From contig NZ_CP019327.1 of NCBI RefSeq assembly GCF_001971705.1, forward strand, positions 1,922,001 to 1,986,000: a stretch of DNA of 64,000 nucleotides, read 5' to 3'. This document shows positions 4,934 through 20,917 of the stretch, piece by piece. The translations under genes and the position numbers were made by a program. The first letter of the stretch is position 1. Every line of letters begins with the position of its first letter. The DNA comes from Natronorubrum daqingense. GTDB taxonomy: Archaea > Halobacteriota > Halobacteria > Halobacteriales > Natrialbaceae. The notes under the pieces are model-generated. The model saw nothing but the letters and a program-made list of their open reading frames with translations. It was not told the DNA's origin and did not search any database.

Positions 4934-5040
4934 GTCCTTTCACTCGTTATCGCGGCTTACTGCAACTGAAAATATCCCATAACTCTCGAGCACACATCGG
5001 CTTTCGTGACCGTGAAAATACCATGTAGTGAAAACACGTG

Positions 5041-5050
5041 AATACTATAG
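5041..5050 (+). promoter_or_regulatory. TATA-like box of the brxE-A-B-C operon
   Basis: AATACTATAG is centred about 28 nt before the ATG at 5074. This spacing supports a leaderless transcript and favours that ATG over the GTG at 5038, which lies at the box itself. It is probably the main promoter of the first BREX block. Confidence 0.5.
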
Positions 5051-5073
5051 GGGCGGTCACCAATCGACACAGT

Positions 5074-5679
5074 ATGTCAAGTGAATCGCTCGAGGACGCA
5101 CTCGAAACCGTCCAAGAGGAGTTGGAATCACTAGGGGTGGACGATGCGTTAGCACGGGAGGTTGTCTCGTATCGACTTCTTGTTGAGAGGCTCGGAGAAG
5201 AGCGGAACAACGAGTGGTGGGAATCGATTGTTTTTACCGAAACGGGACGGGATCGACTCGAAGAAGTCACTCCCAAAACCGCAGTCAAAGCGCGAATAGA
5301 CCTTGCACAGCGTATTGGCCGGAAAGTAGAACAGGACAGGTTACCCGAAAACACGGTCTCTCTCTTCTATCTCGGGCCGACTGCGGAGTCACAGATCGAC
5401 GCTGAACTCGAGAACATTGGGAAGGAAGACGTTCCGTTCGATGCACTCGAATCGCTTTCAATTACCTTTGACGAGGCGGGATGGGCGGATGGTCTCGTCG
5501 ATGACACCGAACCCGCTATAGATACTACAGAGACAGTGATGCAGATCGGAGATATTAGCGACGAATCGGAACTCAAGTCACGGCGTACGCTTCGTGAAGT
5601 CGCACGCCAGTGTGTAGTAGCATACGGCCACTCTACTCACAACAGCCTTCGAGTGCCCTACTACAACATCGATCGATGA
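5074..5679 (+). CDS. brxE: BrxE-like BREX protein
   Basis: A 201-residue protein beginning at ATG 5074. It carries the pattern of the BrxE family: an N-terminal helix with LLVERLGEE followed by the WWES pair and a Pro-rich turn (VTPKTAVKAR), then an LFYLGP segment. BrxE is a small protein of unknown biochemical role described from type 6 BREX loci. Here its stop overlaps the start of brxA (ATGATGA), so the two are translationally coupled and head the BREX operon. The match was recognised from motif layout only and should be confirmed by profile search. Confidence 0.6.
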   Translation: MSSESLEDALETVQEELESLGVDDALAREVVSYRLLVERLGEERNNEWWESIVFTETGRDRLEEVTPKTAVKARIDLAQRIGRKVEQDRLPENTVSLFYLGPTAESQIDAELENIGKEDVPFDALESLSITFDEAGWADGLVDDTEPAIDTTETVMQIGDISDESELKSRRTLREVARQCVVAYGHSTHNSLRVPYYNIDR

Positions 5680-6467
5680 TGACTCAACCAGTTGATTCGG
5701 AAGACGTTGAGTACGACTCCTGGATAGCTCACAATACGACGTATATCGAGGAGACAAAACGCGTTCTGGAGGAGTACGTTGAACTCCAGTCTTTTGACGA
5801 TACCAAGGAACGCGTCGTCGGGGATAATATTCTAAATAAAGAGACTAGCAAGTATCGAAAGACCGTATTCCGCGAGATTGCTCGTCGATACATCCCTCAT
5901 GAAGATGAGTATGTTGAAACACCGCTGATGCGCGTACTAGCATCCGAGGTGGATGAGACCATCAAAGAGTGGATCCTCTACTACGAATTTTCGCAGAATA
6001 AGTTGATCCGTCAGTTGACGATCGACTTCCTGTACAAGAAATACACCAGTGGCTCACTCCTTATTCAAGCCCCAGAAATACGCGAGTACATCACTGAGTT
6101 AGGAAAGAATCATCCGGAGATACAGGACTGGTCTCAGAGTACGCTTGAGGAAGCGAGTACGAAGTACCTGAGCGCTCTGAAGAATTTTGGACTGTTAAAA
6201 GGGACTCTGGAAAAAGAGTTTGAGGTGTTCTATGTTCCTGACGAAGCGATAGCGTACGTCTGCTACCAACTCTATGGAGACGACGCTGAGACAGTGGAGG
6301 AACTCGTTTCGCATCCAGATTGGCGGCTATTCTTCTTCGACGAAGATGAGGTTCGGCGAAGATTGCAAGGAATCAGCCCCCGGTATATCCGATACGAAAA
6401 GCGAGGTAGTACCGAACGAATCGAGCCGGTTTTCGACGATATTCACGAGGCCATCGATGACTTCTAG
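5676..6467 (+). CDS. brxA: BREX protein BrxA (DUF1819-like)
   Basis: About 262 residues from the ATGATG at 5676-5681; the coordinates start at the first of the two. The central part (about residues 45-185) has the helical DUF1819 pattern, including NILNKETSKYRKTVFREIARRY and an SALKNFGLLKG segment near 165-175. BrxA is a small DNA-binding helical protein required in several BREX types. The protein is longer than the usual ~200 residues, with a roughly 40-residue acidic N-terminal extension and a C-terminal tail. It overlaps brxE by 4 nt and brxB by 11 nt, so the order E-A-B-C is strongly coupled. Confidence 0.75.
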   Translation: MMTQPVDSEDVEYDSWIAHNTTYIEETKRVLEEYVELQSFDDTKERVVGDNILNKETSKYRKTVFREIARRYIPHEDEYVETPLMRVLASEVDETIKEWILYYEFSQNKLIRQLTIDFLYKKYTSGSLLIQAPEIREYITELGKNHPEIQDWSQSTLEEASTKYLSALKNFGLLKGTLEKEFEVFYVPDEAIAYVCYQLYGDDAETVEELVSHPDWRLFFFDEDEVRRRLQGISPRYIRYEKRGSTERIEPVFDDIHEAIDDF

Positions 6468-7020
6468 TAAGATACAATCCCGAATGGAGGAACTCGAGTC
6501 GTTGACAATAGACAACCGAGAGCGTATCGGCCGACGTACTGGGGTCCCATTTATCGTGTTCACATACGATCCAAAAGACGAACTCTCGGTCGATGACACG
6601 GTAGAAGCGTACGTCAAAAAACTGCGTAACCGAGGACAGTCAGTGGAGCGCATTGATATGCGCGACCTCGTCTTTACTCTCCTCGAGGAAGAACGCATCC
6701 TCGATGCTGTCATCGAGAAAGAGCAGGCAAATGAGGGGGAATTGCGTGAGGGACTCTCTTCCGTCCTTCTCGGCGGGAGGACTGACGAACAGGGACTGAT
6801 TGCGGAAACGATCAAGGACCGAATCGACGATGTCGATACTGCAGTGGTGTACAGAACTGGAGTCTTGTACCCCTTCGCTGGCATCTCTTCGATTCTCATG
6901 CAGCTAGAGAACGAAATCGAAACACCATTCGTCGTCTTCTATCCCGCAGTCAAAGAAGACAAGAGTTTAAAATTCCTCGACAAAACAGAGGGGACATACT
7001 ACCGCGCTCGGGTGATCTAA
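6457..7020 (+). CDS. brxB: BREX protein BrxB (DUF1788-like)
   Basis: 187 residues from ATG 6457, which overlaps the end of brxA; the frame is open further upstream but that part duplicates brxA coding. The DUF1788 signature is clear: an N-terminal VPFIVFTYDP strand, then RGQSVERIDMRDLV, and a C-terminal block VVYRTGVLYPF…FVVFYPAVKED. The length is close to that of the family. BrxB is an essential but poorly understood BREX component that may work with BrxC. It ends one base before the brxC start codon. Confidence 0.8.
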   Translation: MTSSKIQSRMEELESLTIDNRERIGRRTGVPFIVFTYDPKDELSVDDTVEAYVKKLRNRGQSVERIDMRDLVFTLLEEERILDAVIEKEQANEGELREGLSSVLLGGRTDEQGLIAETIKDRIDDVDTAVVYRTGVLYPFAGISSILMQLENEIETPFVVFYPAVKEDKSLKFLDKTEGTYYRARVI

Positions 7021-7021
7021 T

Positions 7022-10000
7022 ATGAGTTCAAACACGATAACCACGATTGACGATATCTTCTATCGGTCGATAGACCGGCACATCAACCGCGTCGTTAAGG
7101 TTGAACAAGACGACACAGAGACGGTAAAACAGGAACTCGACGAATACGTACTAACCGGGTCTCTCGAGCAACACTACCTAAAGATTCTGGAGGCGATCCG
7201 AGATACGGAGCACAATCCGACCGACGAAACGGGGGTCTGGATTTCCGGGTTCTTCGGCTCAGGAAAGAGCCACTTCATGAAGATCCTCGGCTACATTCTG
7301 GAGGATAAGACGCTCCCCGACGGCCGATCCGCCGCAGAGGCGTTCAAGCCTCGAGCGCAAGATGAAACCCTGAAAGCGACCGTTGACGCCGTTAGCCGAA
7401 CGTTCGACTCGGAGGTGCTGATGTTCCAGATCGGCTCGCGAACGAGCCGAGCCGGTGAGGATTCGATCACAGACGTGATCAACCGCGAATTCAATCGCAA
7501 GCAAGGCTACGCGGAGCTCCCGTGGGTCGCGCGTCTGGAAGAGGACCTCGAAAAGGAAGGACGATACGAAGCGTTCAAAGAGGCAGTCGAAGCCAACGAC
7601 GGACGAGACTGGGAGGAGATTCAACAGAGCGCTGCGTTCATCGAGCCAAAAATCGAACAGGGGCTCGTCGATGCCGTTCCCGATTTCGACGAGCAGGACG
7701 CGAAGAACGCGATAGAGAACGTCAAAGACGAGCCGGAGATCACTCCTGCCTCGCTCGCGGAACGAATTCTCGAGTATGTCGAGCAGAAAGAGGCCGAAAC
7801 GGATCAAGACGTTCGATTCTTCGTCTTCTTGGACGAGATCTCGCAGTTCATCGGTGACGACGAGCAGTTACTCCTTGAACTCCAGAGTATCGCCGAAAAA
7901 TTCGGCGAAAAGGGGATGGGGAAGCTCTGGCTCGGAGTGACTTCCCAAGAGAAACTCGAGGAACTCGTTCCGGGAGTTCTTGCGAAGAACCTCGAAGAGT
8001 CGAAAGTCGGCGACCGGTTCCCGCACCAAACGGATCTCATCTCGGATAACCTCGACGACGTCGTTCGTGACCGTATCTTGCAAAAGAAGGGAGATGCAAT
8101 CCCATCGATCGAGACGCTGTACGGTGATAATGAGGGTCGGCTGAGTGCCAGATACAAACTAAACTCATCCCGTCAGATGGAAACGGTCAACGACGAGTCG
8201 TTCGTCGAGTGCTATCCATTCCTCCCCTATCAGCTGGAAATATTGCCCCAGATCTTCGCAGCCCTTCGTGGCCGAGGATCCGACGACCGGTTGACCGGCC
8301 GCGAACGGACACTCATCGACGTTACGCAGAGCGTCTTCAACGAACCGCACAACCTTCGTAATCGTAAGATGGGGGCACTCGCGACACTCGATCTCGTATA
8401 CGAGGAAATTGTTGAGGACATTGACGACGATGATCAGCGGACGATTGCCGATGCATCTCCACAGGATGTCGATAACGAACTGGCACGCCGAGTACTGAAA
8501 TCACTGTACCTCTTGCAGCGTCTCGACTGGATTCCCAACACCGCTTCAAACATCGCGACGACCCTGTACGACGAAATAGGGGACATGAGCGCCTTCGAGA
8601 GCGAGGTTGAGGGGGTTTTAGAGCAGTTGGTCGAAGAAGGATACGTCGGTCGTGGCGAGGAAGGATACCGGTTCCTGCAGGAATCGGAACGGAAACTCGA
8701 GGACGAAATCGCGTCCGTAAAGGTCAACGAAGGGAGAGTCCGCGGTCGCTCAAAGGAATTCGTTCGTGAGGCCCTGGACAGTGCCGATACGGTTCGGTAC
8801 CGAGAACAGCCGTTCCCGGTTTCGGTCGAAGTAGACGGCGAACAACTCTCCGGTAGCGGCCACATCCACCTCCACGCCTACTCTCCGGTTCACCAGCAGT
8901 TCGAAGAAATCAACCCACGGACGCTGAAGACCCAGAGCTTCGATCAAGAGGATACGGTCTACTGGATCGCTGATGATAGCGATGCAAACGATATCAAGAG
9001 TCGAATCAAACGGATCAAGCAGATCGAACAAATTGCGACGGAAAAACAGGGTCAGCAACTCAGTACTGAAGAGCAGGAAGCACTCGATCAAAAGAAAGAG
9101 GATCTTGGTCGAATGCGACGCAGCGTCCAGCGGGACATCGAGATCGCCTTCCAGACTGGAACGCTGATTTACCACGGGAACGAGACGGAACTGGAAGAGT
9201 CGGGAACGCGTCTCGATCGAATCATTCAGGACCCGGCCCGAGACGCCGTCGAGCGGGTTTTCACCAAACTCGAAGACGGACTTGGGAGTGTCAGTAACCG
9301 AAACATCGAGAAGCTGTTCGAAGATCTCGAAAGCCGATCGAATCCGGCCGTATTCAAAGAGTTGAACGTGGTTCTCGATGGCGAGCTAAATCCAGAGGCG
9401 CGGATCGCGACTGAGGTCGCTGACGAGATCGACTCGCGGGAGAAAGCCGGTGACGTTCCTACCGGAAAGGCGTTGATCGAGCACTTCTCCGAGCCACCGT
9501 ACGGTTGGAGCCGCGATGTTGTCCGGCTGGCGGCGGCCGTGTTGTTCAGAAACGGATCGATTATGGCGATCTACAAGGAGCAAACCTTCGACAGCTACGT
9601 CGACGACGGCGCTCAAGATGTGTTCACTCAGATCTCGAAGTTCCGCGAGGCTTCGTTCAAAGAGCGTGAAACGGTCGATCCAGAAACCCGAAACGAGGCA
9701 AAGCAGCTACTCGACATCCTCTTCGACAAGAAAGTCAAGCAAACAGACCAGGAGGTTGCACAGGGGATCTCGGAGGCTGCAAGCGAATGGATCGAGACGT
9801 GTAAGGAGCGACAGACGAATCTCGACGACGCGTTCTTCCCACTGCGTGACGAACCCAAGCGGCTCGTCACGCTACTCACGGCGATTCGAGACAAGGGTAC
9901 GTCGGCGGCAAAGATCAACGCCTTCCTCGAGCACGAAGACGAGCTTGAGGACCTGGTCGGTACGGTGAAGAAGGTCGTCGAGTTCGATCGATCGGGCAAG

Positions 10001-10642
10001 CTCGACAAGTATGCGATCTATCGTGAATTCCTCGAGAACGAGTGGGAGGAGTTCGAAGACCTCGCGAAGACATCCTCATTCGTCGAGATCAGTGACGACG
10101 TACAAGAGGCAGCACGTCAGCTCGAAGGGGAGATCGATTCGAGGGCGGTCATCGAGAACTGGTCGAACATCGAGACCGACTACCGATCGGTTGCGAACGC
10201 ATACGCCCGAACGTACGAAGACCTCTACAAGCAGCGATACGAGCTGTATTCGCGAGCCGCGGACGACGTGCGTGCACAAGGTTCCGATCTCGATACCGAT
10301 GATCTCGAGACGGCTGTCGAGCCACTTACGAATCGGATGGGGAGTTCGTCGATCTCCGTGGATATCGACGAGCGTTCGCATTTGAACCTCAATCCGAGTC
10401 TGAAGCAGCTGACCGAGTATCTCCAGACCGTCGATTCGTATCGGAAACAGTCGCGTGATCGAATCGACGAGCTTCGGCCAGAAGACGAGGATGTTACGCA
10501 CTATCGCGTCGACCTCGAGGAGTTCTTCGGAGGCATCATCGTGACGGAGGAAGAGGAACTCGATGCACCCGTTGATCGGCTTCGGACCGAAGTGCTGGAG
10601 TTACTCGACGAGGAGGATGATGTCGAGGTACACTTCGAGTAG
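7022..10642 (+). CDS. brxC: BREX ATPase BrxC/PglY
   Basis: 1206 residues, in the family range for the large BREX ATPase. A Walker A motif GFFGSGKS sits at about residues 76-83 and a Walker B-like strand (FFVFLDEIS) near 268-276. The N-terminus (TTIDDIFYRSIDRHINRVVKV) is typical of BrxC. The remainder is helical with coiled-coil stretches, for example around residues 655-700. BrxC is needed for both methylation and phage exclusion and probably acts with PglX and PglZ. Here there is a single copy, whereas type 5 loci of haloarchaea are described with two. Its stop lies 8 bp from the stop of the convergent nuclease gene. Confidence 0.9.
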   Translation: MSSNTITTIDDIFYRSIDRHINRVVKVEQDDTETVKQELDEYVLTGSLEQHYLKILEAIRDTEHNPTDETGVWISGFFGSGKSHFMKILGYILEDKTLPDGRSAAEAFKPRAQDETLKATVDAVSRTFDSEVLMFQIGSRTSRAGEDSITDVINREFNRKQGYAELPWVARLEEDLEKEGRYEAFKEAVEANDGRDWEEIQQSAAFIEPKIEQGLVDAVPDFDEQDAKNAIENVKDEPEITPASLAERILEYVEQKEAETDQDVRFFVFLDEISQFIGDDEQLLLELQSIAEKFGEKGMGKLWLGVTSQEKLEELVPGVLAKNLEESKVGDRFPHQTDLISDNLDDVVRDRILQKKGDAIPSIETLYGDNEGRLSARYKLNSSRQMETVNDESFVECYPFLPYQLEILPQIFAALRGRGSDDRLTGRERTLIDVTQSVFNEPHNLRNRKMGALATLDLVYEEIVEDIDDDDQRTIADASPQDVDNELARRVLKSLYLLQRLDWIPNTASNIATTLYDEIGDMSAFESEVEGVLEQLVEEGYVGRGEEGYRFLQESERKLEDEIASVKVNEGRVRGRSKEFVREALDSADTVRYREQPFPVSVEVDGEQLSGSGHIHLHAYSPVHQQFEEINPRTLKTQSFDQEDTVYWIADDSDANDIKSRIKRIKQIEQIATEKQGQQLSTEEQEALDQKKEDLGRMRRSVQRDIEIAFQTGTLIYHGNETELEESGTRLDRIIQDPARDAVERVFTKLEDGLGSVSNRNIEKLFEDLESRSNPAVFKELNVVLDGELNPEARIATEVADEIDSREKAGDVPTGKALIEHFSEPPYGWSRDVVRLAAAVLFRNGSIMAIYKEQTFDSYVDDGAQDVFTQISKFREASFKERETVDPETRNEAKQLLDILFDKKVKQTDQEVAQGISEAASEWIETCKERQTNLDDAFFPLRDEPKRLVTLLTAIRDKGTSAAKINAFLEHEDELEDLVGTVKKVVEFDRSGKLDKYAIYREFLENEWEEFEDLAKTSSFVEISDDVQEAARQLEGEIDSRAVIENWSNIETDYRSVANAYARTYEDLYKQRYELYSRAADDVRAQGSDLDTDDLETAVEPLTNRMGSSSISVDIDERSHLNLNPSLKQLTEYLQTVDSYRKQSRDRIDELRPEDEDVTHYRVDLEEFFGGIIVTEEEELDAPVDRLRTEVLELLDEEDDVEVHFE

Positions 10643-10650
10643 CGTCTGAG

Positions 10651-11316
10651 TTAAAGGATCTTAGTCGCTTGTCGTTCGATAGCTGTCTTCTCCATTACAT
10701 CGACATCTCCCATTGCCTGTCGCGTCTGGAACGTGTCATAGGACTCTCGTTCTTTGTAGCGGAACGGAAGTCGTGCAAAGGTTTCGGACAGATCGATCGA
10801 TGCAATTAGTTTATGCTCATCGTCTTTTGCTGGTCGAGCGTATACCTTCCATTTGATACCGTCGGTCGCGAACGCGACGGTTGGATCACCGAGGTCACTC
10901 TTAAGATATTCCACGATGTCCATTTCAGCATACTCGAATTTGTTCGGCGTTTTGACCTCGCCAATGACTGCACACTTGATGTTACTCTGGAAGTTTTTGA
11001 TGGCGAAATCCGGGGTAGAGTGGTCCCATTTCGGGTAGCCGTACGGCTGCGCCCAATGGTCGAAGCCGAAGATATCCAGTGAGGGCCAGACAAGAAACTG
11101 TTCTACGAAGCGTTCTGGCTCTTGTCCAACTTTCTTCCCTTTGAGGTACTTCCCATCGTTGGCAATCTGATCGAGGTGGACGGGGACACCTCGGCGTGAG
11201 AACTCGTCAGCAAAGTTCTCGAGAACGCGGAGCAACCGTTCAGCAATTGAAGAGTGGTCGTCGAAACTCGTGTTCCTGTATCCGTTATCCGTCATTCGTT
11301 GGTCATCGGTAACCAT
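10651..11316 (-). CDS. PD-(D/E)XK nuclease, HsdR N-terminal-like
   Basis: A protein of about 221 residues from ATG 11316; ATG 11295 or GTG 11451 are alternatives, the last running almost into pglX. After a helical N-terminus (ERLLRVLENFADEFSRR) the core shows a canonical PD-(D/E)XK site: STPDFAI, about 16 residues, then GEVKTPN, followed by a helix and VAFATDGIKWKVY. This resembles the nuclease domain at the front of type I restriction R subunits. It is antisense between brxC and pglX, sharing an intergenic control region with pglX. It could supply the DNA cleavage BREX is thought to lack, or be an independent guard. Restriction activity is inferred. Confidence 0.65.
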   Translation of the reverse strand: MVTDDQRMTDNGYRNTSFDDHSSIAERLLRVLENFADEFSRRGVPVHLDQIANDGKYLKGKKVGQEPERFVEQFLVWPSLDIFGFDHWAQPYGYPKWDHSTPDFAIKNFQSNIKCAVIGEVKTPNKFEYAEMDIVEYLKSDLGDPTVAFATDGIKWKVYARPAKDDEHKLIASIDLSETFARLPFRYKERESYDTFQTRQAMGDVDVMEKTAIERQATKIL

Positions 11317-11462
11317 CAACTGATTGCTCAATAGTAGTTCGAAGCATGTTTGTTGAAGAGTCAGTTTCTCGAACCCACTAGATTGATACGGCTGCTGTTT
11401 GTGGAAGGTAGTATACTGGAAGAGGGCAGCACCACGCTCCCTCGAATTCACGGACTCTACAT

Positions 11463-14400
11463 ATGTCAGCGAAAACTCGACACAACGGTCTCAGCGCGGA
11501 CGTTCGATCGGACATCCGAAGCACCATTTTACAGGCTCGCAAGACGCTCGAGGACGAATTTGAACGCCAACTCGAGCGCTACGGGATATACGATGACGAG
11601 CGAGTCCCGGTGAGTTCGCTATCTCACCTGTCCGTCGAGGATATTGCGACACGGAAAGAGATCGATGCAGCGCTCGAGCGTGAACTCGAGGCAACAGATG
11701 GACTCTACGGGCGGGCATATCAGAACTACATTCGCGAAGCGACCAAGGAGCATCTCAACCGGCTCGTCGGGCTGAAGACGATCGAAGCGCGAGATCTAGT
11801 CACAGAGACGCTTCGGACGCGGGCGGAGTACGGGAATCGCTCGTACATGCACTACACTGTCGACGAGATCGCCGGGGAGTTGACCGATACCTCCGATGAC
11901 GGCCTGGGGGTTGCACTGGATTTAGCCTACCAGGAGATTGGATCGGAAATTCAGGTGCTGTTCGATGGGTCGGATTACACGGCAATTGAGCCGGGCTTTG
12001 CGGTTCGACGGGAGGTGCTTGAGGAACTTGACGATCTTGAGAACGATGTCTGGGCATCGGACGAGGCAATGGGATGGGTATACCAGTACTTTGGCAAGAA
12101 CGAGCGCGAGGAAATCGACCACCGAATCAACGAAGGTGATTATAAGGTACGGGACACGGATGTCGCAACGAAGACACAACTCTTCACGCCCCGTTATATC
12201 GTCGAGTGGATGGTCGATAATTCGCTGGGGCGATTATGGCTCGAAATGTACGGCGATCAGACGGACATCAACGACGAAAACAAATGTTTCTACCTCGCTC
12301 CTCTTGAGGAGTCGCTAACCGACCGAAATGTAAAGGATGTCCGTGAAATTAAGGTACTGGACCCAGCCTGTGGCAGCGGACATATGCTGTTCTACGCCTT
12401 CGATGTACTGTATGAGATGTATCTTGAGCACAGTGATGTTGCCGAGAAGTACATTCCCCGAGAGATTTTAAAAAACAATTTATATGGGGTTGATATTGAT
12501 GAGGGCGCAGCCCAGATTGCGGCTCTGTCACTATATGTGAAAGCGAAGAGCCACTCACCGAATGTTGCTATTGAAGGGATGAACATCGTATCAGCAAACG
12601 CTGTATTAGTCAATGGTGAAAAAAAGGAAGAAGTGCTAAAGCGGGCTGATTCAGAGTTAGAACAGCGAGTTCTTGAGCAAGTATGGACGAGTTTTGAGCA
12701 TATTCGAGAGTGGGGGAGTTTAGTTCGGATCGAAGAACAAATCGAGGAAATTATCGAGGAAGAACTTGAAGAGATTAGCTCAACAGGTCAATCACAGTTT
12801 ACAAACGATGGGAAGTTGGCAAAGCAATCCTCTGTAGTTGCGTTTTCAGATGATGAAGATGAATCATGGGAACAAATAAAAGAGAGACTTTTGACACAAG
12901 TCAAGTATTTGGCCGAAGAAGCTTTGGAACAAAACGACCCTGTTGAAGAAATGTTTGCCGAGGAAGTGGAAAAAAGCGTACGCTTGTTAGATGTTTTTGT
13001 AGAAGATTTTGATGTTGTAGTGTCTAATCCTCCATATCTTGGAAGTAAGAAAATGGGTGAGGACCTGAAAAAACATATAAAAAGTTATAAGGGCAGCAGA
13101 AATCTCTATACCGCGTTTATTGAACGATGTACAGAATTCGCTGATGAAGATGGCTATGTGACAATGGTAACTCCTGAAGATTTCATGTTTCTTTATAGTT
13201 ATAGGGGTCTCCGAAAAGAACTCGTGTCAAACCAACAATTGATAGAGGGTGCACATCTATCGCGCTATGGTTTTGATCAAGCTAAAGATTCGTATACAAT
13301 TCCGTTTGTGCTACGTAATACTAATCCTTCCAACTTTCAGTCATCTAGATTCTACCGCATGACTCACGAACAAGAGAAGTATGAAGACTTCGAGGACAAA
13401 ATCAATGGTTTGAAAGAGATAACGAATTATAACAGATCAAATAAACCACATGATGATGTATATGTTGTGAATCAAAATACATTCCAAGAAATAGACCGCC
13501 AACCATTTGTCTATTGGTTTGGATCAGAAATATTGAATTTATATGAGGAGTATCCACTATTAGACGATCTTGCAGATGTTGTTGCTGGGCTCCAGACCGG
13601 AGACGATGATAAATTCACTAGGTGCTGGTGGGAGATAGAAGAAGATCAAATAGGAAATCAATACAAATGGTATATGTTGAGTGGTGATGACGATGTCTAT
13701 TACTACTCTCCAGAAAGAATCGTTCGCTGGGAAGGTGATGGGGAAAGCATAAAAAATGAAGACGGGAGTCACGTGAGGAATGAAGACTATTATGGCAACC
13801 AAGGAATCACTTTCCGTCGAGCGAGTAAGCGATTCACTGCACGTGTCCAGCCTAAAGATCACATCTTTAGTAACCATGCACATTTTGTAGATGTTCAAGA
13901 CGATGAAAGAACAAAAGAACTCGTCACATACCTTTGTTCCTCACTCGTTCGCTTTATATTGCAGGGATTAAATCCTGGATTAGATTTCCAAGTGGGTGAT
14001 GGGAAACGAATTCCAGTGAAAGAAGAACCGTCTGAAAAGCTTCAAAGCTTAGGGCAGAGTGCAATTGAAGTACAAAAATCAAAATCATCTCTCTATGAAA
14101 CTAAGCGCGAGTTCAGTGGAGAAATTTTCCAGAAGTCATTTGATCAATACTTATTACAGAAGGATTTGGCAACATCAGATATTGAAATCATACATGGATT
14201 AGCTGACAATAGTGTCTTCGAAGAGTATGGGATTGATGGAAGGGCAAAAGATCGTGTATTAGATGAAAATTTGGCAAATCTGTCAGAATATCCACACTTG
14301 AAAAACTCAGGGGAAATTGAATCTGACTCGCGAGAGTTCCGTGAGAGAATACCCACAACCGAAGTTGACAACGAAACTTATGATAATATTGTAAAGGTCA

Positions 14401-15170
14401 TTAGAGATAATATGGGGGACTCTATCCGAGAGATAGCGGAAAAAACTGAAGTCTCACCATATACGATCACTTTGATTAGATCCCAAAACGATCTGTATAC
14501 TCGTGGTGAGAAACAAGAAGCAGCAGGCCGGCTTCTGTCATATTATCTTGGATATGTTTTCGGCAGATGGGATCATCTCGAGCAAGTCACACCTATCGAA
14601 GACGATATCCTCGTCTTCGACGATCAGTTTGACAATAACGTAACTGGTCGCATCCGCAAGTGCATCAAAGCCAATTTCGACAACGTTTATGAGAAGGAAG
14701 CCGAGATCGAGGAGTTACTCAACAAGGATATGACCGACTGGCTACAAGAGAACTTCTTCCGCTATCACCACACGAAGGAGTACCGCCGTCGCGGTCAGCG
14801 CATCCCTATTTACTGGCACCTCGAGAGCGACGACGGTGCGTTCAGTTGCTTCCTCTACTATCACGCCATGGACGCCGAAACGCTTCCAAAACTCCGCGGT
14901 CAGTACGTCGACGCCAAGATCGAAACCCTCGAGAATCGGCTCGAAAGCATCGAGAGTCAACTCGAGGGCGCGAGTGACGATCGGAAACCCGAACTCAACT
15001 CCGAACTCGAGGAGGTTCAGGAACAACTCGATGATGTTAGAGACTTCGGTGAGCGACTCGACGAGTTGATCGATGAGGGCTTCGAGCCGGACTTCGAGGC
15101 TGGCATCTGGGAGAACATCCAACAGGTCGATGAGTACGATCTCCTGCAGACTGAATTGGATAAGCTCTGA
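11463..15170 (+). CDS. pglX: BREX adenine-specific DNA methyltransferase PglX
   Basis: 1235 residues. It has N6-adenine methyltransferase motif I (LDPACGSGHML, about residues 299-309) and motif IV NPPYLG at about 522. The C-terminal half should hold the target recognition region and ends in a coiled coil (about 1150-1200). It methylates one strand of an asymmetric site and marks self DNA. Base composition is uneven: roughly 11463-12450 and 14570-15170 use GC-rich codons like brxC, while about 12450-14560, covering motif IV and recognition sequence, is distinctly AT-rich. This suggests replacement of the specificity part by recombination. The start is ATG 11463; a TATA-like TATACT at 11411-11416 is about 50 nt upstream, implying a short leader. 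Confidence 0.9.
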   Translation: MSAKTRHNGLSADVRSDIRSTILQARKTLEDEFERQLERYGIYDDERVPVSSLSHLSVEDIATRKEIDAALERELEATDGLYGRAYQNYIREATKEHLNRLVGLKTIEARDLVTETLRTRAEYGNRSYMHYTVDEIAGELTDTSDDGLGVALDLAYQEIGSEIQVLFDGSDYTAIEPGFAVRREVLEELDDLENDVWASDEAMGWVYQYFGKNEREEIDHRINEGDYKVRDTDVATKTQLFTPRYIVEWMVDNSLGRLWLEMYGDQTDINDENKCFYLAPLEESLTDRNVKDVREIKVLDPACGSGHMLFYAFDVLYEMYLEHSDVAEKYIPREILKNNLYGVDIDEGAAQIAALSLYVKAKSHSPNVAIEGMNIVSANAVLVNGEKKEEVLKRADSELEQRVLEQVWTSFEHIREWGSLVRIEEQIEEIIEEELEEISSTGQSQFTNDGKLAKQSSVVAFSDDEDESWEQIKERLLTQVKYLAEEALEQNDPVEEMFAEEVEKSVRLLDVFVEDFDVVVSNPPYLGSKKMGEDLKKHIKSYKGSRNLYTAFIERCTEFADEDGYVTMVTPEDFMFLYSYRGLRKELVSNQQLIEGAHLSRYGFDQAKDSYTIPFVLRNTNPSNFQSSRFYRMTHEQEKYEDFEDKINGLKEITNYNRSNKPHDDVYVVNQNTFQEIDRQPFVYWFGSEILNLYEEYPLLDDLADVVAGLQTGDDDKFTRCWWEIEEDQIGNQYKWYMLSGDDDVYYYSPERIVRWEGDGESIKNEDGSHVRNEDYYGNQGITFRRASKRFTARVQPKDHIFSNHAHFVDVQDDERTKELVTYLCSSLVRFILQGLNPGLDFQVGDGKRIPVKEEPSEKLQSLGQSAIEVQKSKSSLYETKREFSGEIFQKSFDQYLLQKDLATSDIEIIHGLADNSVFEEYGIDGRAKDRVLDENLANLSEYPHLKNSGEIESDSREFRERIPTTEVDNETYDNIVKVIRDNMGDSIREIAEKTEVSPYTITLIRSQNDLYTRGEKQEAAGRLLSYYLGYVFGRWDHLEQVTPIEDDILVFDDQFDNNVTGRIRKCIKANFDNVYEKEAEIEELLNKDMTDWLQENFFRYHHTKEYRRRGQRIPIYWHLESDDGAFSCFLYYHAMDAETLPKLRGQYVDAKIETLENRLESIESQLEGASDDRKPELNSELEEVQEQLDDVRDFGERLDELIDEGFEPDFEAGIWENIQQVDEYDLLQTELDKL

Positions 15171-15411
15171 TTTGGATGTCGTTCTCGCATCGGTCCCGTC
15201 TCAGTTAGAGCGGTTCTAATATGCAAACTTACCGTGGACCGTCACTGGAGAAGGCCAGCAAATAACGGCACCGATAAGAACGATCATTTGCCTGGTTTCA
15301 CGGCGAAAACCGACTTACCAGTGTCTACTAGAAAAGTCGGTATTCTGTCGGTTCGCAAAGAGTGAGTACGGAACGCCAATAAAAATAACAGCTAACCTCT
15401 ATATCTTTAAA
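15171..15411. terminator. Convergent intergenic region with hairpin
   Basis: Between the ends of pglX and the opposing small gene, arms ACCGACTT (15309-15316) and AAGTCGGT (15334-15341) can pair over a 17-nt loop, and the segment after 15378 is AT-rich. It may end transcription from both sides. No gene is seen here. Confidence 0.35.
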
Positions 15412-15783
15412 TCATGCCTGTACTACCTGTTGATAGGACTCGAGAATCGAACGTCGAACTTCATCCGTGATATCACCTGTTCCCCGTAACTCGACCGTAT
15501 ACTTGAACGAGCCACGCCACTTCCAGCTCCGTGGAATTTCGCTAAACTGATTGCTCTCTTTTGGCGTCTGAAGCGGGGCCTCACGAACGGAATCCTTGAC
15601 CGACCCATCTAGGTGGATGTACACGAATGAATCACCTCGATTTGGCTGGACAGTCATAAATGCCAATCGCCGACTGTCGGGTCGATCAACGTAGTAAGTA
15701 AAGCCCTCACCGGACTGTTGTTTGCTCCATCCCTCGAGTTCTCCCGAAACGAACCTTTCGACAGCAGACATAATCTCTTCCAT
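15412..15783 (-). CDS. Small conserved-looking protein of unknown function
   Basis: 123 residues from ATG 15783. The sequence alternates strands typical of a compact alpha/beta domain: FTYYVDRPDSRRLAFMTVQP, then FVYIHLDG, then WRGSFKYTVELRG, ending in a helix. No catalytic motif or family was recognised with confidence; it is loosely reminiscent of small DUF5655-type domains found with nucleases. It is encoded antisense within the BREX locus between pglX and pglZ and starts about 100 bp from the divergent zinc-ribbon gene, so the two may share a control region. Confidence 0.6.
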   Translation of the reverse strand: MEEIMSAVERFVSGELEGWSKQQSGEGFTYYVDRPDSRRLAFMTVQPNRGDSFVYIHLDGSVKDSVREAPLQTPKESNQFSEIPRSWKWRGSFKYTVELRGTGDITDEVRRSILESYQQVVQA

Positions 15784-15886
15784 AGATTCCCTTCTTACGG
15801 AATTGTGAAATTAGTATCGGCTCGTCTACATTGAGCGCACACGCAGATGCCGTCAAAGATATTAGCATACAAGCAAGTAATGCTGG

Positions 15887-16360
15887 ATGGACTTTTGCAA
15901 CCAGTGTGGTGTCCTTCTCATACCTGACGCAGATAGTGATCAGTGTACGGACTGTGATTCAGAAAACGGTTCACCAACTATCTCACGCCAGGCAGAAGCA
16001 GTTGGAACTGATCTTGAGCAACTTCGATCAACAAAAAGTGGTACCATCCGCAAGCGGAATGCGGAAAAGTGGCTTCGCAATTGTGATAGACCGAGTTCAA
16101 CGGAATTCAAGCGGTCAATTCTCCCGAAACCAGCGGGATTCGAAGGCAGTACCTATGAAACGGATATTTCGAATATCCGTGTTACCGGTGATGCGCAGTT
16201 CGTCGAAACCGTCGCCGGACTCCTAAAATCGATCCTCGATCTCGAAAACGACGAGACACGGGTCGAATTAAATCTCCAGCGAACGAGGGTCCGTGACACT
16301 AAACAGTATACAGGGAACTACGCGCTCTATCTCTCCGTAGCTGAACGAGGTGGTCAATGA
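15887..16360 (+). CDS. Zinc-ribbon protein within BREX locus
   Basis: 157 residues from ATG 15887. The N-terminus carries a treble-type zinc ribbon with two Cys pairs (CNQCG at residues 4-8 and CTDC near 20-23). The remainder (about 45-157) is charged and includes FVETVAGLLKSILDLEND followed by VELNLQRTRV, which may be a small alpha/beta domain. A TATA-like ATATTAG about 26 nt upstream supports a leaderless start. No family was recognised. The position between pglX and pglZ, with its own promoter, suggests an accessory BREX gene or a passenger inserted with the neighbouring nuclease. Confidence 0.6.
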   Translation: MDFCNQCGVLLIPDADSDQCTDCDSENGSPTISRQAEAVGTDLEQLRSTKSGTIRKRNAEKWLRNCDRPSSTEFKRSILPKPAGFEGSTYETDISNIRVTGDAQFVETVAGLLKSILDLENDETRVELNLQRTRVRDTKQYTGNYALYLSVAERGGQ

Positions 16361-16485
16361 GCTGTTACAAGAACGTGTTCGGTATTATTTCGACCTGTGC
16401 GAACCTTGGTCACATGGATCATTGAAATACACCCCCCTGTATTCGAAAATCGGGCGTGGTTTCTTTGGCTCACCGCAAGAGCAAC

Positions 16486-18345
16486 CTACCACTCAGCTGC
16501 ACTCGCATGAGTCCTTGGAGTATCCCACTTATCCATCACAAACTGTATTAATCTCTCTTCACGCTCACCAATGCTCTTAACCGACCATTCATCGTAATCT
16601 TGGAGATCCCACTGTACCCATAGCTTCGATTTCTCGTATCCTTCGTCGCGTTTCGTCTGGAAATCCTTGTTCCCCCACTTCGAGTTCCAAGATTTGCTCG
16701 CAAGCGTTAAATTACCAAAGCGATGTTTGTAGGCATCATATCGCGCCTGGGCACTTGGATAATCTCCTGGCTCCTCAATAGGCAGTTCATCGGGGCTCTG
16801 TGGCCAGATATGCTCGATAGTGTAATTCTCACCCATTGCATCATCTAACGAAATCGATCCTGTCTCTCCTTCGTCTACGGCGCGGTGTTCATTGTAAAAG
16901 TAGAAGAGGTATCGGAGATCTTGTGAGGTAACATTTGTGTATAGATCAGACGACGACAATACTCGTCGGAACTGTGAATCGTTTTCGTATCGATGCATGA
17001 TATTGACGATTTTATGTATCCACACATTGATAGAACTCGTCTCAGTCGTATCTCTTGCCAGTGTTTGGAGCGATGATCGACCAGTGTAAGTTGGATGGTT
17101 TCCAACAGCGTATACTCTGAAAATGTATGTTTCAATGGCATCGAGAAGTTTTCGTCGACCTTCACGGTCTAGATGAGGCCACGCCTTGAGTAACAACGGA
17201 TAGAACTTCGTTGCATGGCGTAGTTTGTGAATCCGGTCAATCAGATCAGCAATCTCATCATCTTTCCGGTGTGAGAGAATATTCCCGAGATTATCAAATG
17301 CCCTCTCAAGGCTTTCGACGTACTCTTGAATGTACTCCAAGCATGCTTCTGGGTCCTTCTCTCGTAACGAACGCACGTGTGATTTGAGATTTTCGAGGAA
17401 TGCTGGAGTCTGGTGATCTTGGCGGTCGGACCAATCGAAGAACGTGATAAAATGATAGCGCTGGACCGCATCGTCTTCAATATCGTCGATGTATGGAGAA
17501 TCAATCATTCGCTGGTGGTCGTCATACATCTGACCGAACGCTTGACGAATCTGACGGATTGTCCCCTGTCCATCATCTTCGTCTTCTGCTGCGAGATAAG
17601 CCATTCTCATGAGAAATGACTTCGTCTTGTCGAAGGTAGACAATGCTCGCCCTCGGTCATTTACACTGTCGAAAATAAGCGTCGCTTTTTCTGGGTTTTC
17701 GGCGTCTACGACGTATACCATCAACTCCAAGTCAAGAATTGTCTCCCAGAGCTGCTTGAGTTCAGTAGCAATTTCGATCGCTTCGACTTCTGGTTGCTCC
17801 CAGAGCTCTTCCAATTGATCGTCAAAATACTCCTTTGCTTCTATCATCTTTCGTTGGGAGGGGCGCTCTGGTTCAGAAAGATTCCGACCGTCAATAATCC
17901 GTTCAAGATATTCGCTATCTTCCCCATCGAGTAATTTGAGGAAGTAGATGTTATCTTCGACTAAGATTTTCTTTCTCATTTCCTCTACGTCGTTGAGTAT
18001 TTCCTCTTCATGGGCAGTCTTCGGCGCGATCTGCTCGAGAAATTCAATCATTGACTTAGCCAATAGTGTAAGCGAGGTCAGTCGCTGTTGACCATCGATT
18101 AGGAGATTAATATTCTTCTCTGTTTCACCGCCGTATCCATCGATTTGTTGTGCTGTTTCTGTCTCGTTCGTCTTTTGAATGATGATCGTTCCGAAATAAT
18201 GTTGTTTCCCATCGGGTAGCGTTGACAGGTCGGTCCAGAGATCGCTCCACTCTGGTTTCTTCCACGAGTAGTACCGTTGATAATCGGGAATATGGAAAAC
18301 CCCGGCCGTCGTAAGTTCCTCTAACGATTTCTTACCAGACTCCAT
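16486..18345 (-). CDS. GmrSD/BrxU-like DUF262-DUF1524 restriction protein
   Basis: About 619 residues from ATG 18345. The N-terminal DUF262 (ParB-like nucleotide hydrolysis) domain shows IPDYQRYYSW near residue 20 and the hallmark DGQQRLT near residue 84, with FDSVNDRGRALS following at about 215-230. The C-terminal DUF1524 HNH nuclease has EHIWPQ, then GNLTL and NSKW. This fused layout is that of type IV GmrSD enzymes, and of BrxU found in BREX loci of bacteria, which cut phage DNA with modified cytosines. It is divergent from pglZ with promoters packed into about 135 bp. Codon use is more AT-rich than pglZ. It probably protects against phages whose modified DNA evades BREX. Confidence 0.85.
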   Translation of the reverse strand: MESGKKSLEELTTAGVFHIPDYQRYYSWKKPEWSDLWTDLSTLPDGKQHYFGTIIIQKTNETETAQQIDGYGGETEKNINLLIDGQQRLTSLTLLAKSMIEFLEQIAPKTAHEEEILNDVEEMRKKILVEDNIYFLKLLDGEDSEYLERIIDGRNLSEPERPSQRKMIEAKEYFDDQLEELWEQPEVEAIEIATELKQLWETILDLELMVYVVDAENPEKATLIFDSVNDRGRALSTFDKTKSFLMRMAYLAAEDEDDGQGTIRQIRQAFGQMYDDHQRMIDSPYIDDIEDDAVQRYHFITFFDWSDRQDHQTPAFLENLKSHVRSLREKDPEACLEYIQEYVESLERAFDNLGNILSHRKDDEIADLIDRIHKLRHATKFYPLLLKAWPHLDREGRRKLLDAIETYIFRVYAVGNHPTYTGRSSLQTLARDTTETSSINVWIHKIVNIMHRYENDSQFRRVLSSSDLYTNVTSQDLRYLFYFYNEHRAVDEGETGSISLDDAMGENYTIEHIWPQSPDELPIEEPGDYPSAQARYDAYKHRFGNLTLASKSWNSKWGNKDFQTKRDEGYEKSKLWVQWDLQDYDEWSVKSIGEREERLIQFVMDKWDTPRTHASAAEW

Positions 18346-18365
18346 ACTCCCACTCCTCACAGCGA

Positions 18366-18375
18366 AGTAATAATT
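18366..18375 (-). promoter_or_regulatory. TATA-like box of the GmrSD-like gene
   Basis: Read on the minus strand, AATTATTACT is centred about 26 nt before ATG 18345, fitting a leaderless start and supporting this ATG over the codon at 18360. Confidence 0.45.
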
Positions 18376-18400
18376 CCTGTCCCCATCGAACTACCTGACT

Positions 18401-18410
18401 ATTATAGTAG
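18401..18410 (+). promoter_or_regulatory. TATA-like box of pglZ-brxL
   Basis: ATTATAGTAG would place transcription start near 18431, giving pglZ a leader of about 50 nt. That leader holds a 13-residue frame (ATG 18441) whose TAA overlaps the pglZ ATG as TAATG. Confidence 0.4.
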
Positions 18411-18481
18411 CAGTCACTCTATGACCGACAAGTGAGATTCATGCAACGAAGGAAAATCGACTGTACGTCGGTGATTCGCTA

Positions 18482-20917
18482 ATGTCGGACACGTTCACGG
18501 AGGTCGTCACCGAACTCGAGGAAAAGTTCGATCGCCATCCCGTCTGGGTCTGGTACGATTCGAGCGAGAAGTACGGCAACGTCATCGACGATATCGAAGC
18601 GACGATGGAAGATCGAGGGGTGAACGTCGCCCGATACGATGGAAGCTTCCTCGAACTGAAACGTCGCCTCTGGGAAGAGGACAACGACATCGAAGAGGAG
18701 TGGTTGTTCTACATCCCGAAATGGCGCGATGAGGCGGAGTGGTTTATGGACGTCCACCGGCTGGGTCGACAGTTCCGGCCCGGCGCAACTGTCGGTGATC
18801 GCCCCGCTTCGAAGTATCTCGTCGGAAAGGAGGATCGAATCCCGGACGAGTACGCCAACTGGGGGCAAAACGAGACGCAACTGAGTCGAGCGTTCTTCTG
18901 CGTCCTCTTCGAAACGCCGAACCATTCTCCGCGAGACTACATCGTCCAGTACCTCGCGGATCCCGACGCGTACCGTGATACGATCGAAGAACACGGGCAG
19001 GGGCACGAGTGGGAACACCTTCTTCAAGACACGTACGGCATCTCGGCGGGGCTCGACGCGGAAGAGATCGCAACCGAAGTACTCTTCGGCGAACTCCAAC
19101 ACAACTCTCCCACCGACCGGTATGACCGTCTCGCTGCCGACGATACGAAAGCAGCAACTGAACTCTGTGAATACTGGCAGAAGATCGATACCGCGACCTA
19201 TCTCGAGTACGCCGCTTCGGTTAGCGAGGACCGGAATCTCACCCAAGAGGTCGTCGGCTCGGACTCGCTCGAGTGGGCGTCGAATTCGTTCCGACAGGTC
19301 GACGACGGCCTCGTCCAACTCTGTCTGAATCGCCTTTCCCAAGCCGACTTCGATGAACTCCCCACAATTGCAACCGAGCTCGAGTCCGTCGTCGAGCGGC
19401 GACGGAACGGGTTCTGGTACGATGAGGGACACGCTGGGTACTGGGATATTCTCGACCACGGATTGGAAGTCCTCGACGATGCAGGATCCGCAATAGACGA
19501 AATCGAAGCCGAGGGATACGATCCGAGAACTCTCGCTGACCGGTACACTGACGACTGGTGGACGATAGACGCTGCGTACCGTCGATACGTCCGCAGCGTC
19601 AAAGACAACCGTCGTCCCGTCGAGGGATTGCACGACGTTCGAGACCGGATTACGAACTACTACGTGTCGTTCCTTCGGACGCTCAACCGTCCGGTCGCCG
19701 AATACCTCGCCGACGACCCTGTGCTCGGAACACCACAGACGGGCTTCTTCGACTCACACGTCGATCGTGAAGATGGAACGGCAGTCATCATCTGTGATGG
19801 ATTGCGATATGAACTAGCCCGTGAGTTAGAGGAACGGTTCGAATCCGACGACGAAACCGACCAGCACACTGCGCTCGCGTCGGCTGCACTTCCGTCGATC
19901 ACGGAGGTCGGGATGGCGACTCATCTTCCCGGAGATCTTTCGCTCAAACTTGACTCGAGCGAAGACTTAGTCGTGGAAGTCGACGAAACCGAAATCTCGT
20001 CGAAGCAGGATCGGAAAGCCTGCTTGAACGATGCCGGGTTCACGGTTTCGGATATCGATGACGTTCTGAGTACCCCTCAGAAATCCCTGAAAGAAGAGGG
20101 TGTACCACCGAGAATTGTTTACTCCGGTATTATCGACAAGCTCGGGGAAAGTCTCGACGATGATAAGGCACTTGCACAGGCTGCCGACCACGTTCGCGAC
20201 GTAGAGGACGTAATTCAACGCCTCCGCGCTGCAGGGTACACTCGGTTCGTTGTGACCGCAGATCACGGCTTCCTCTACACCGAAGAACTCTCCGACCGGG
20301 ATAAGGTCGAATCACTCGATGGGGTTGCGTTCACGAAGCGAAGATTCGCAGCAGCCAATGCTGATGCTCCGGTTATTCCGGGTGAGGAGATCATCGAGTT
20401 CGACGAGAGCCAACTGAGTCAATTAGGGATCGAAGCGGACGATCTTCGACTGTTCTTCCCGCGAAGCGTCGCCTGCTTCAAAGCAGCCGGTGGAAACATG
20501 CGTTACTTCCACGGGGGTATTTCGATGCAGGAGTTAGCAGTCCCCTGCCTTACAGTGACGACCGTTGAGCGCGAGGACGAAGACGCTCCGATCGAATACG
20601 ACGTGTCGTTCCCAGACAACGTAACAAACACCATCGTCGACGTAACGATTGCTGCTCGGAGTAGTCAGCTTTCGTTTTCCCGGACGCCGACACTCCGACT
20701 CACGGCAACGGTCGATGGTCGAGAGGTGGCGGAACCGAAACTCATCGAGGTCAACCAGGGCGAGAACGAAGCAACGCTCCGTCTGAAAAGCGGCGAACTC
20801 GACGAGGACGCAACCATTTTGTTCGAGGCGATTGACGAAGAGACGCGTGAGACAGTGGCCAAGGGTGAAGCGAAAAATGACATCATTATGCGTGAAGACT
20901 TCGAATTCGATATCTAA
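18482..20917 (+). CDS. pglZ: BREX phosphatase-fold protein PglZ
   Basis: 811 residues, the family length. The alkaline-phosphatase-like PglZ domain occupies roughly residues 380-700: VIICDGLRYEL near 435-445 holds the first metal-binding Asp, and VTADHGFLY near 592-600 holds the Asp-His pair. The N-terminal half (PVWVWYDSSEKY…) is the usual PglZ front domain. PglZ is a core BREX component present in all types. It begins the second BREX transcript and overlaps brxL by one base. Its sequence is even in composition and GC-rich, unlike the centre of pglX. Confidence 0.9.
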   Translation: MSDTFTEVVTELEEKFDRHPVWVWYDSSEKYGNVIDDIEATMEDRGVNVARYDGSFLELKRRLWEEDNDIEEEWLFYIPKWRDEAEWFMDVHRLGRQFRPGATVGDRPASKYLVGKEDRIPDEYANWGQNETQLSRAFFCVLFETPNHSPRDYIVQYLADPDAYRDTIEEHGQGHEWEHLLQDTYGISAGLDAEEIATEVLFGELQHNSPTDRYDRLAADDTKAATELCEYWQKIDTATYLEYAASVSEDRNLTQEVVGSDSLEWASNSFRQVDDGLVQLCLNRLSQADFDELPTIATELESVVERRRNGFWYDEGHAGYWDILDHGLEVLDDAGSAIDEIEAEGYDPRTLADRYTDDWWTIDAAYRRYVRSVKDNRRPVEGLHDVRDRITNYYVSFLRTLNRPVAEYLADDPVLGTPQTGFFDSHVDREDGTAVIICDGLRYELARELEERFESDDETDQHTALASAALPSITEVGMATHLPGDLSLKLDSSEDLVVEVDETEISSKQDRKACLNDAGFTVSDIDDVLSTPQKSLKEEGVPPRIVYSGIIDKLGESLDDDKALAQAADHVRDVEDVIQRLRAAGYTRFVVTADHGFLYTEELSDRDKVESLDGVAFTKRRFAAANADAPVIPGEEIIEFDESQLSQLGIEADDLRLFFPRSVACFKAAGGNMRYFHGGISMQELAVPCLTVTTVEREDEDAPIEYDVSFPDNVTNTIVDVTIAARSSQLSFSRTPTLRLTATVDGREVAEPKLIEVNQGENEATLRLKSGELDEDATILFEAIDEETRETVAKGEAKNDIIMREDFEFDI

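What the first reader, a model, noticed from the sequence alone, without database searches (positions are those of the whole stretch)
12450..14560. Mosaic pglX with AT-rich specificity core
Codons at about 12450-14560 are much richer in A/T than both ends of the same gene and than brxC. The region covers motif IV and the expected target recognition part. This fits replacement of specificity by recombination, giving a new methylation site while keeping the GC-rich ends that contact partners.
Basis: partly seen in the sequence, partly recalled or inferred. Interest (0 to 1): 0.6.

Follow-up and report, generated by a model that had tools for sequence, protein, structure and literature searches.

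The report
Swapped DNA-recognition core in BREX methylase
The gene for an archaeon's virus-defence enzyme has kept its two ends but carries an exchanged middle part, the part that reads the DNA target, and this middle is AT-rich here and in most of its relatives examined in archaea and bacteria.

Summary
Observation confirmed. The interpretation also holds at the level of DNA ancestry. Against four close relatives the pglX ends are 84-100% identical in protein; aa 601-1050 is 18-73%. Synonymous sites are near saturation in the core but not in the ends or in brxC, pglZ and brxL. A core tree rejects the grouping that the ends support (p-AU 0.0096). The exchanged block holds the MTase loop after motif IV, the target recognition domain and the spacer; one clear exchange (L013/L014) breaks right after NPPY, as do 7 of 10 E. 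coli pairs. Two corrections. The AT-rich core does not mark one import into this strain: core GC3 is below both ends in 24 of 27 haloarchaeal and 18 of 19 hand-picked bacterial pglX. And the AT-rich zone begins 139-304 codons before the fitted exchange junctions. A new methylation site is inferred, not shown. Known kind of system; the compositional rule is the notable part.

The parts
11463..15170 (+). pglX (brxX), BREX-1 adenine-specific DNA methyltransferase, 1235 aa, intact
   Evidence: NCBIfam NF033452 703.6 bits, cut-off 500; PADLOC PglX 504 bits
11463..12464 (+). conserved 5' frame (aa 1-334): N-terminal domain and start of the MTase domain, GC3 0.63
12360..12380 (+). motif I (DPACGSG, aa 300-306), in the conserved frame
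12465..14606 (+). AT-rich zone (aa 335-1048), GC3 0.34
   Evidence: change-point fit; four-fold sites
12882..14696 (+). widest fitted replaced block against close relatives (aa 474-1078, vs L033); vs the same-genus L006 it is 13140-14576 (aa 560-1038)
   Evidence: identity change-point fits
13026..13037 (+). motif IV NPPY (aa 522-525); exchange junctions occur just behind it in relatives
13257..13295 (+). MTase loop (aa 599-611), equivalent to E. coli BrxX 587-601, which sets the last base of the site; four allele types in relatives
   Evidence: alignment; alleles; role from PMC11842806 passages
13488..14033 (+). target recognition domain (about aa 676-857)
   Evidence: alignment to 9ewz_C, limits from PMC11842806
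14034..14606 (+). spacer-helix region, AT-rich and divergent
   Evidence: spacer role from PMC11341690 passages
14607..15170 (+). conserved 3' frame (C-terminal domain), GC3 0.71
5038..5679 (+). brxE
   Evidence: NCBIfam NF033447 132.7 bits, cut-off 40
5610..6467 (+). brxA (start by homology probably 5676)
   Evidence: PF08849; L033 alignment
6274..7020 (+). brxB (start by homology probably near 6457)
   Evidence: PF08747; L033 alignment
7022..10642 (+). brxC
   Evidence: PADLOC 610 bits
18482..20917 (+). pglZ
   Evidence: PADLOC 236 bits
20917..22944 (+). brxL
   Evidence: PADLOC 954 bits

Best explanation
This is the pglX gene of a type 1-like BREX locus in a halophilic archaeon, and it is a mosaic. 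Shown by sequence comparison: the frame (N-terminal domain with the SAM-binding start of the methyltransferase, and the C-terminal domain) shares recent ancestry with pglX of close relatives, while the core (end of the MTase domain with the site-reading loop, target recognition domain, spacer) has much older and different ancestry in every pair. Inferred: the core is exchanged as a cassette by homologous recombination when another BREX locus enters the cell, anchored in the conserved MTase part around motif IV on the left and in the C-terminal domain on the right; selection keeps the frame because it holds the catalytic machinery and probably the contacts with BrxB, BrxC and PglZ, and favours new cores because a new core gives a new 6-base site that viruses have not escaped. 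The low GC of the core is a standing property of these specificity modules, not a trace of one import.
For: Protein identity to L033/L006: BrxC 98.3/97.8%, PglZ 96.8/97.5%, BrxL 97.2/99.3%; pglX aa 1-150 98/94% and aa 1051-1235 94/95%, but 32-65% in the 75-aa bins of aa 526-825 and 18-51% in those of aa 826-975. Four-fold sites differing: ends 35/136 and 40/138, core 76/106 and 43/64; mean 21% over 44 windows of brxC, pglZ, brxL. The five close genes form one clade on the ends (98/98) and not on aa 601-1048 (held together: lnL lower by 66.9, p-AU 0.0096); L004's core groups with L018 of another family (98/90). L013/L014 (different families): 89.8 / 61.9 / 91.9% nt identity with breaks at aa 526 and 897; gain 203 vs at most 13 with codons permuted; the left break is right after NPPY. 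E. coli: 7 of 10 pairs of 5 alleles break at reference aa 515-518 (NPPY 510-513), 3 at 642-665; ends 89-96%, core 48-52% nt identity. The MTase loop comes in 4 types needing 10 changes on the ends tree (shuffled mean 12.5; 13 of 200 shuffles as low). Residues at five TRD base-contact equivalents form a different combination in each of the five close genes.
Against: No donor was found: the nearest core is 52.7% identical, and phage and viral collections gave only distant hits (21-28%). Pairs are not independent; left junctions in haloarchaea are diffuse (aa 474-639 for this gene), so several overlapping events are likely. The AT-rich zone starts upstream of the fitted junctions. A polarised-change test showed no amelioration of the cores in three triples (68 AT-to-GC, 64 GC-to-AT); it is inconclusive but gives no support to recent AT-rich import. 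Changed specificity was not measured.
Confidence: 0.88

Rival explanations
1. No DNA exchange: the core evolves in place under strong diversifying selection.
For: The TRD is the most variable part of BrxX in ConSurf analysis (PMC11842806 passage), as expected for a specificity module.
Against: Synonymous sites are near saturation only in the core and partly in aa 151-480 (core 76/106 vs ends 35/136; brxC, pglZ, brxL about 21%); trees conflict; L013/L014 change abruptly from about 90% to 62% nt identity and back.
Confidence: 0.05
2. A single recent import of an AT-rich core into this strain explains the low GC.
For: The core GC3 (0.34) is an outlier in the locus; island gene 2789-3847 has the same GC3 (0.35).
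Against: Core GC3 is below both ends in 24 of 27 haloarchaeal pglX, core below rest in 9 of 9 BREX-5-like genes, below both ends in 18 of 19 bacterial pglX, core below rest in 5 of 5 E. coli alleles. L033 and L006 share an AT-rich core with different sequences. No donor found.
Confidence: 0.07
3. Compatible with the best explanation and about the AT shift only: the shift arises in place. Rapidly replaced modules escape GC-raising forces (codon selection, or GC-biased gene conversion, which cannot act where alleles are too different to pair), so they rest nearer the mutational AT bias.
For: Core GC3 follows the level of the ends with an offset (core = 0.66 x rest + 0.01 in 19 bacterial genes; 0.60 x rest + 0.08 in 46), not one fixed pool value; GC3 tracks local conservation in pglX (rho 0.79 and 0.74 in two haloarchaeal sets; 0.93 in 12 bacterial genes); three triples show no amelioration.
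Against: Windows of brxC, pglZ, brxL show no such relation (rho -0.16, p 0.29; only 3 windows under 65% identity). Donor DNA that is regularly more AT-rich than its host would look the same.
Confidence: 0.45
4. Phase-variable shuffling from silent cassettes in the same genome.
For: Duplications and phase variation of pglX are mentioned for BREX clusters (PMC11842806 passage).
Against: No second core in the own genome even at E 1; the two weak full-length hits lie in the motif I area; no long inverted repeats flank the block.
Confidence: 0.03

Closest known systems
BREX type 1 PglX/BrxX (E. coli HS, Salmonella D23580; PMC11842806, PMC11341690, passages seen)
   Same: Same domain order NTD, MTase, TRD, CTD; 9ewz_C matched over aa 189-886 and 1051-1219; TRD reported as most variable; specificity changed by engineering the TRD
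   Different: Archaeal and distant, BrxE present; here natural exchange of the core is shown, with junctions
Type I restriction-modification HsdS with exchanged TRDs (Furuta 2011, PMC3077401, start of abstract in a listing only)
   Same: Conserved frame with exchangeable TRDs; haloarchaeal HsdS is also AT-shifted: GC3 0.44 against 0.69 in the upstream frame, lower in 20 of 20
   Different: HsdS is a separate subunit with two TRDs (recalled); PglX is one chain with one TRD plus an MTase loop
Type IIL/MmeI-like enzymes (compared with BrxX in PMC11842806 passages)
   Same: MTase and TRD in one chain, site reading shared by both
   Different: They have a nuclease domain and no BREX partners
BREX type 5 PglX of haloarchaea
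   Same: Conserved ends, variable and AT-shifted core (core below rest in 9 of 9, p<1e-3 in 7 of 9)
   Different: About 30% identical, about 1400 aa; the label is by inference and one annotated member (H93), no family scan was run on them

Membership tests
BREX type 1 | gene set and order brxA-brxB-brxC-pglX-pglZ-brxL | tested here: met
   all six in order, with an opposite-strand gene before pglX and two genes before pglZ
BREX type 1 | PglX above the NCBIfam BREX-1 cut-off | tested here: met
   703.6 vs 500; BREX-5 and BREX-6 models below their cut-offs
BREX type 1 | PglZ above the NCBIfam type 1 cut-off | tested here: not met
   TIGR02687 178 vs 270; no PglZ model reached its cut-off. Filed as type 1-like only
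BREX type 6 | BrxE, PglX and PglZ above the BREX-6 cut-offs | tested here: not met
   BrxE 50.2 vs 80, PglX 441 vs 900, PglZ 109 vs 400
PglX/BrxX | motif I and NPPY motif IV | tested here: met
   aa 300 and 522
PglX/BrxX | four-domain fold | tested here: inconclusive
   sequence match to 9ewz and 8c45; AlphaFold model of the MTase-TRD part poor, pLDDT 49.7
PglX/BrxX | methylation of a 6-base site and phage exclusion | not testable with these tools
   needs methylome and infection tests
Specificity modules exchanged by recombination | conserved ends, divergent core, synonymous saturation and tree conflict | tested here: met
Phase-variable specificity loci | silent cassettes or inverted repeats in the genome | tested here: not met

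The most novel reading that the evidence does not exclude
DNA-specificity modules are standing compositional islands: in BREX PglX (and in HsdS) the target-reading core has about two thirds of the GC3 of its own gene's ends (or partner) in hosts of widely different GC, in archaea and bacteria, and in PglX it is exchanged at two recurrent left junctions, right behind NPPY (loop plus TRD) or at the MTase-TRD hinge (TRD alone). If so, composition alone can mark the exchangeable cassette in uncharacterised methylases, and loop and TRD recombine separately to build new sites.
Probability: 0.55. Interest if true: 0.62.

Novelty: new member of a known kind. Interest (0 to 1): 0.5.

Why it matters
It shows natural replacement of the recognition core in BREX PglX, in archaea and within E. 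coli, with junctions that match the known structure. Engineered changes were known; the natural exchanges give ready-made chimeras for reading the specificity code. The regular AT shift of specificity modules across hosts raises a testable question: why are quickly replaced gene parts AT-rich?

Tried and rejected
Single AT-rich import: rejected as the general cause. A common donor pool of fixed composition: not favoured, since core GC3 follows that of the ends (slope 0.60-0.66). Phage or virus donors: only distant hits. Silent cassettes: none. Direction-of-change test at four-fold sites: inconclusive, three triples, biased by parsimony. AlphaFold of the PglX core: pLDDT 49.7, not used. The genome-contig scan found no relative. 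Profile and fold searches with the opposite-strand ORF: no PDB sequence match at E 0.1, no fold match at E 0.001 or better.

Rows dropped: L022 and L023 (partial genes) from the 27-gene set; L034 = L004 and L037 = L020 are the same records, each counted once per set; L072, a frameshifted second copy in a 12-kb duplication 99.94% identical, not used. The first profile had 8 minus-strand loci unreversed and was redone. The 19 bacterial genes were hand-picked from the listed rows for host GC, not drawn at random. The 30 HsdS loci are those returned; 20 with an upstream frame of 300 codons or more were tested, and that frame was assumed, not checked, to be hsdM. The E. coli alleles are 5: the query and 4 chosen from 40 listed rows.

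Full report
What is there. The window lies in a haloarchaeal chromosome (3.84 Mb assembly, window at C1:1922001-1986000); the closest named relatives are Natrialbaceae. A type 1-like BREX locus runs brxE 5038, brxA, brxB, brxC 7022-10642, an opposite-strand ORF 10651-11451, pglX 11463-15170, a zinc-ribbon ORF 15887, a GmrSD gene on the minus strand 16486-18360, pglZ 18482-20917, brxL 20917-22944. Below, Q is the pglX of the window.

Composition. GC3 of pglX is 0.63 / 0.34 / 0.71 with boundaries 12465 and 14606; gain 62.5 against at most 9.4 in 30 shuffles. The drop is also seen at four-fold sites (0.66 in the ends, 0.34 in the core). brxC, pglZ and brxL have GC3 0.67, 0.65 and 0.60.

Close relatives. 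A search of 392 genomes of the order gave 77 with a match at E 1e-30. Four relatives have nearly the same BREX locus: L033 (Halomontanus rarus plasmid), L004 = L034 (Natronosalvus caseinilyticus plasmid), L005 (G294), L006 (G312, same genus). BrxC, PglZ and BrxL are 98/97/97% identical to L033 and 98/98/99% to L006, 82-94% to the other two. The pglX ends are about as similar as the partners (84-100% in 75-aa bins of aa 1-150 and 1051-1235); the core is not: over aa 601-1050 the bins give 39-65% (L033), 18-47% (L006), 30-73% (L004) and 36-55% (L005). Conserved ends with a divergent centre are seen in all 10 pairs of the five genes.

Replacement, not only fast change. Four-fold sites differing between Q and L033: ends 35/136, aa 151-480 60/109, core 76/106; Q and L006: 40/138, 61/103, 43/64. 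The mean over 44 windows of brxC, pglZ and brxL is 21%. So the core, and in part aa 151-480, has older ancestry than the rest. In trees of 27 genes the close five are one clade on the ends (98/98) but not on aa 601-1048 (p-AU 0.0096; L006 and others are long branches there, a caveat the test shares). On aa 240-520 the five are again one clade (100/100). Within the core, Q is nearest to L004 for aa 526-650 (68-92% in 25-aa bins, against 36-60% for L033) and nearest to L033 for aa 676-850 (44-92% against 28-44% for L004), so the core itself is a mosaic with a break near the MTase-TRD hinge.

Junctions. Two-break fits of nucleotide identity give, for pairs with Q, aa 474-1078 (L033), 560-1038 (L006), 639-1032 (L004), 513-1038 (L005); others: L004/L005 497-1020, L033/L006 526-1035, L013/L014 526-897, L012/L014 599-847. 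In L013/L014, which come from different families, identity falls from 94 to 67% at aa 526, behind NPPY 522-525. In E. coli, megablast of one pglX found 69 records; of the 40 listed, 16 carry both ends but lack part of the middle (63-76% covered in two pieces). Five alleles compared: 7 of 10 pairs break at aa 515-518 (NPPY 510-513) and 3 at 642-665, right ends 957-1011; ends 89-96%, core 48-52% nt identity. These 10 pairs rest on 5 alleles and are not independent. E. coli BrxX has its hinge at 638-675 and its TRD at 651-837 (PMC11842806 passages).

What the block contains. By alignment to E. coli BrxX it holds the equivalent of MTase loop 587-601, reported to set the last base of the site, and the TRD base contacts K681, D684, R751, Q784 and N823 (passages). 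The loop has four types among 27 genes (12, 9, 5, 1), spread over distant genes: 10 changes on the ends tree, 11 on the MTase and TRD trees, hardly fewer than shuffled labels (means 12.4-12.6). At the five TRD contact equivalents the five close genes show five different combinations. That this gives five specificities is inference.

The AT shift is general. Core GC3 is lower than both ends in 24 of 27 haloarchaeal genes, p<1e-3 for core against ends in 21. In 9 BREX-5-like genes the core is lower than the rest in 9, p<1e-3 in 7. In 14 of 14 bacterial genes with ends at GC3 0.55 or more the core is lower than both ends (all p<1e-3); in 4 of 5 with lower ends, significant in 3; Ligilactobacillus at 0.18 shows none. 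In 5 of 5 E. coli alleles the core is 0.29-0.32 against 0.45-0.48. HsdS of haloarchaea is lower than the upstream frame in 20 of 20. GC3 follows local conservation in pglX (rho 0.79, 0.74, 0.93) but not in the windows of the partner genes (rho -0.16), although few of those are as divergent. Core GC3 rises with that of the ends (slope 0.60-0.66), so one fixed donor pool does not explain it. I cannot decide between regularly AT-rich donors and forces acting in place; a direction test was inconclusive.

Prior work. PMC11842806 (passages) names the TRD as most variable and shows changes of specificity by single mutations; PMC9009780 (passages) notes that pglX divergence between E. coli HS and Salmonella fits variable recognition domains; PMC11341690 (passages) engineered PglX; PMC12839542 (passages) reviews BREX domains and nucleases. 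I saw no report of natural core exchange with mapped junctions, or of the GC trough in PglX, in searches; that library lacks most subscription journals.

Noticed in passing
window 10651-11451 (-), probable gene 10651-11316: Opposite-strand ORF between brxC and pglX with an invariant PDF...GE.K pattern in 13 aligned sequences, a likely PD-(D/E)XK nuclease; body 58% and 52% identical in L033 and L034, no match in L005, and only the pglX-adjacent first codons match in L006, so it varies like the pglX core. Model pLDDT 78, no significant fold match.
   Followed up: partly
window 15171-18481: The slot between pglX and pglZ holds different genes in the close relatives; here a zinc-ribbon ORF and a GmrSD-type restriction gene. 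E. coli loci carry a DUF262 gene just before pglX.
   Followed up: no
L036 2421-6095 and 12028-15726: Halobaculum halobium has two pglX genes flanking brxE-A-B-C; the upstream one has no AT-rich core (GC3 0.68 core, 0.60 ends).
   Followed up: partly
L037 / L072 (Haloarcula halophila plasmid): A 12-kb stretch with part of the BREX locus is duplicated at 99.94% identity; pglX in one copy is split by a frameshift near aa 323.
   Followed up: no
window 2789-3847 (+): ORF of 352 aa with GC3 0.35, as low as the pglX core, no family match above cut-off.
   Followed up: no
window 23223-24848 (-): 541-aa protein matching phrog_3288 'transcriptional regulator' at 516 bits, next to brxL and present in G294 at 87%.
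   Followed up: no
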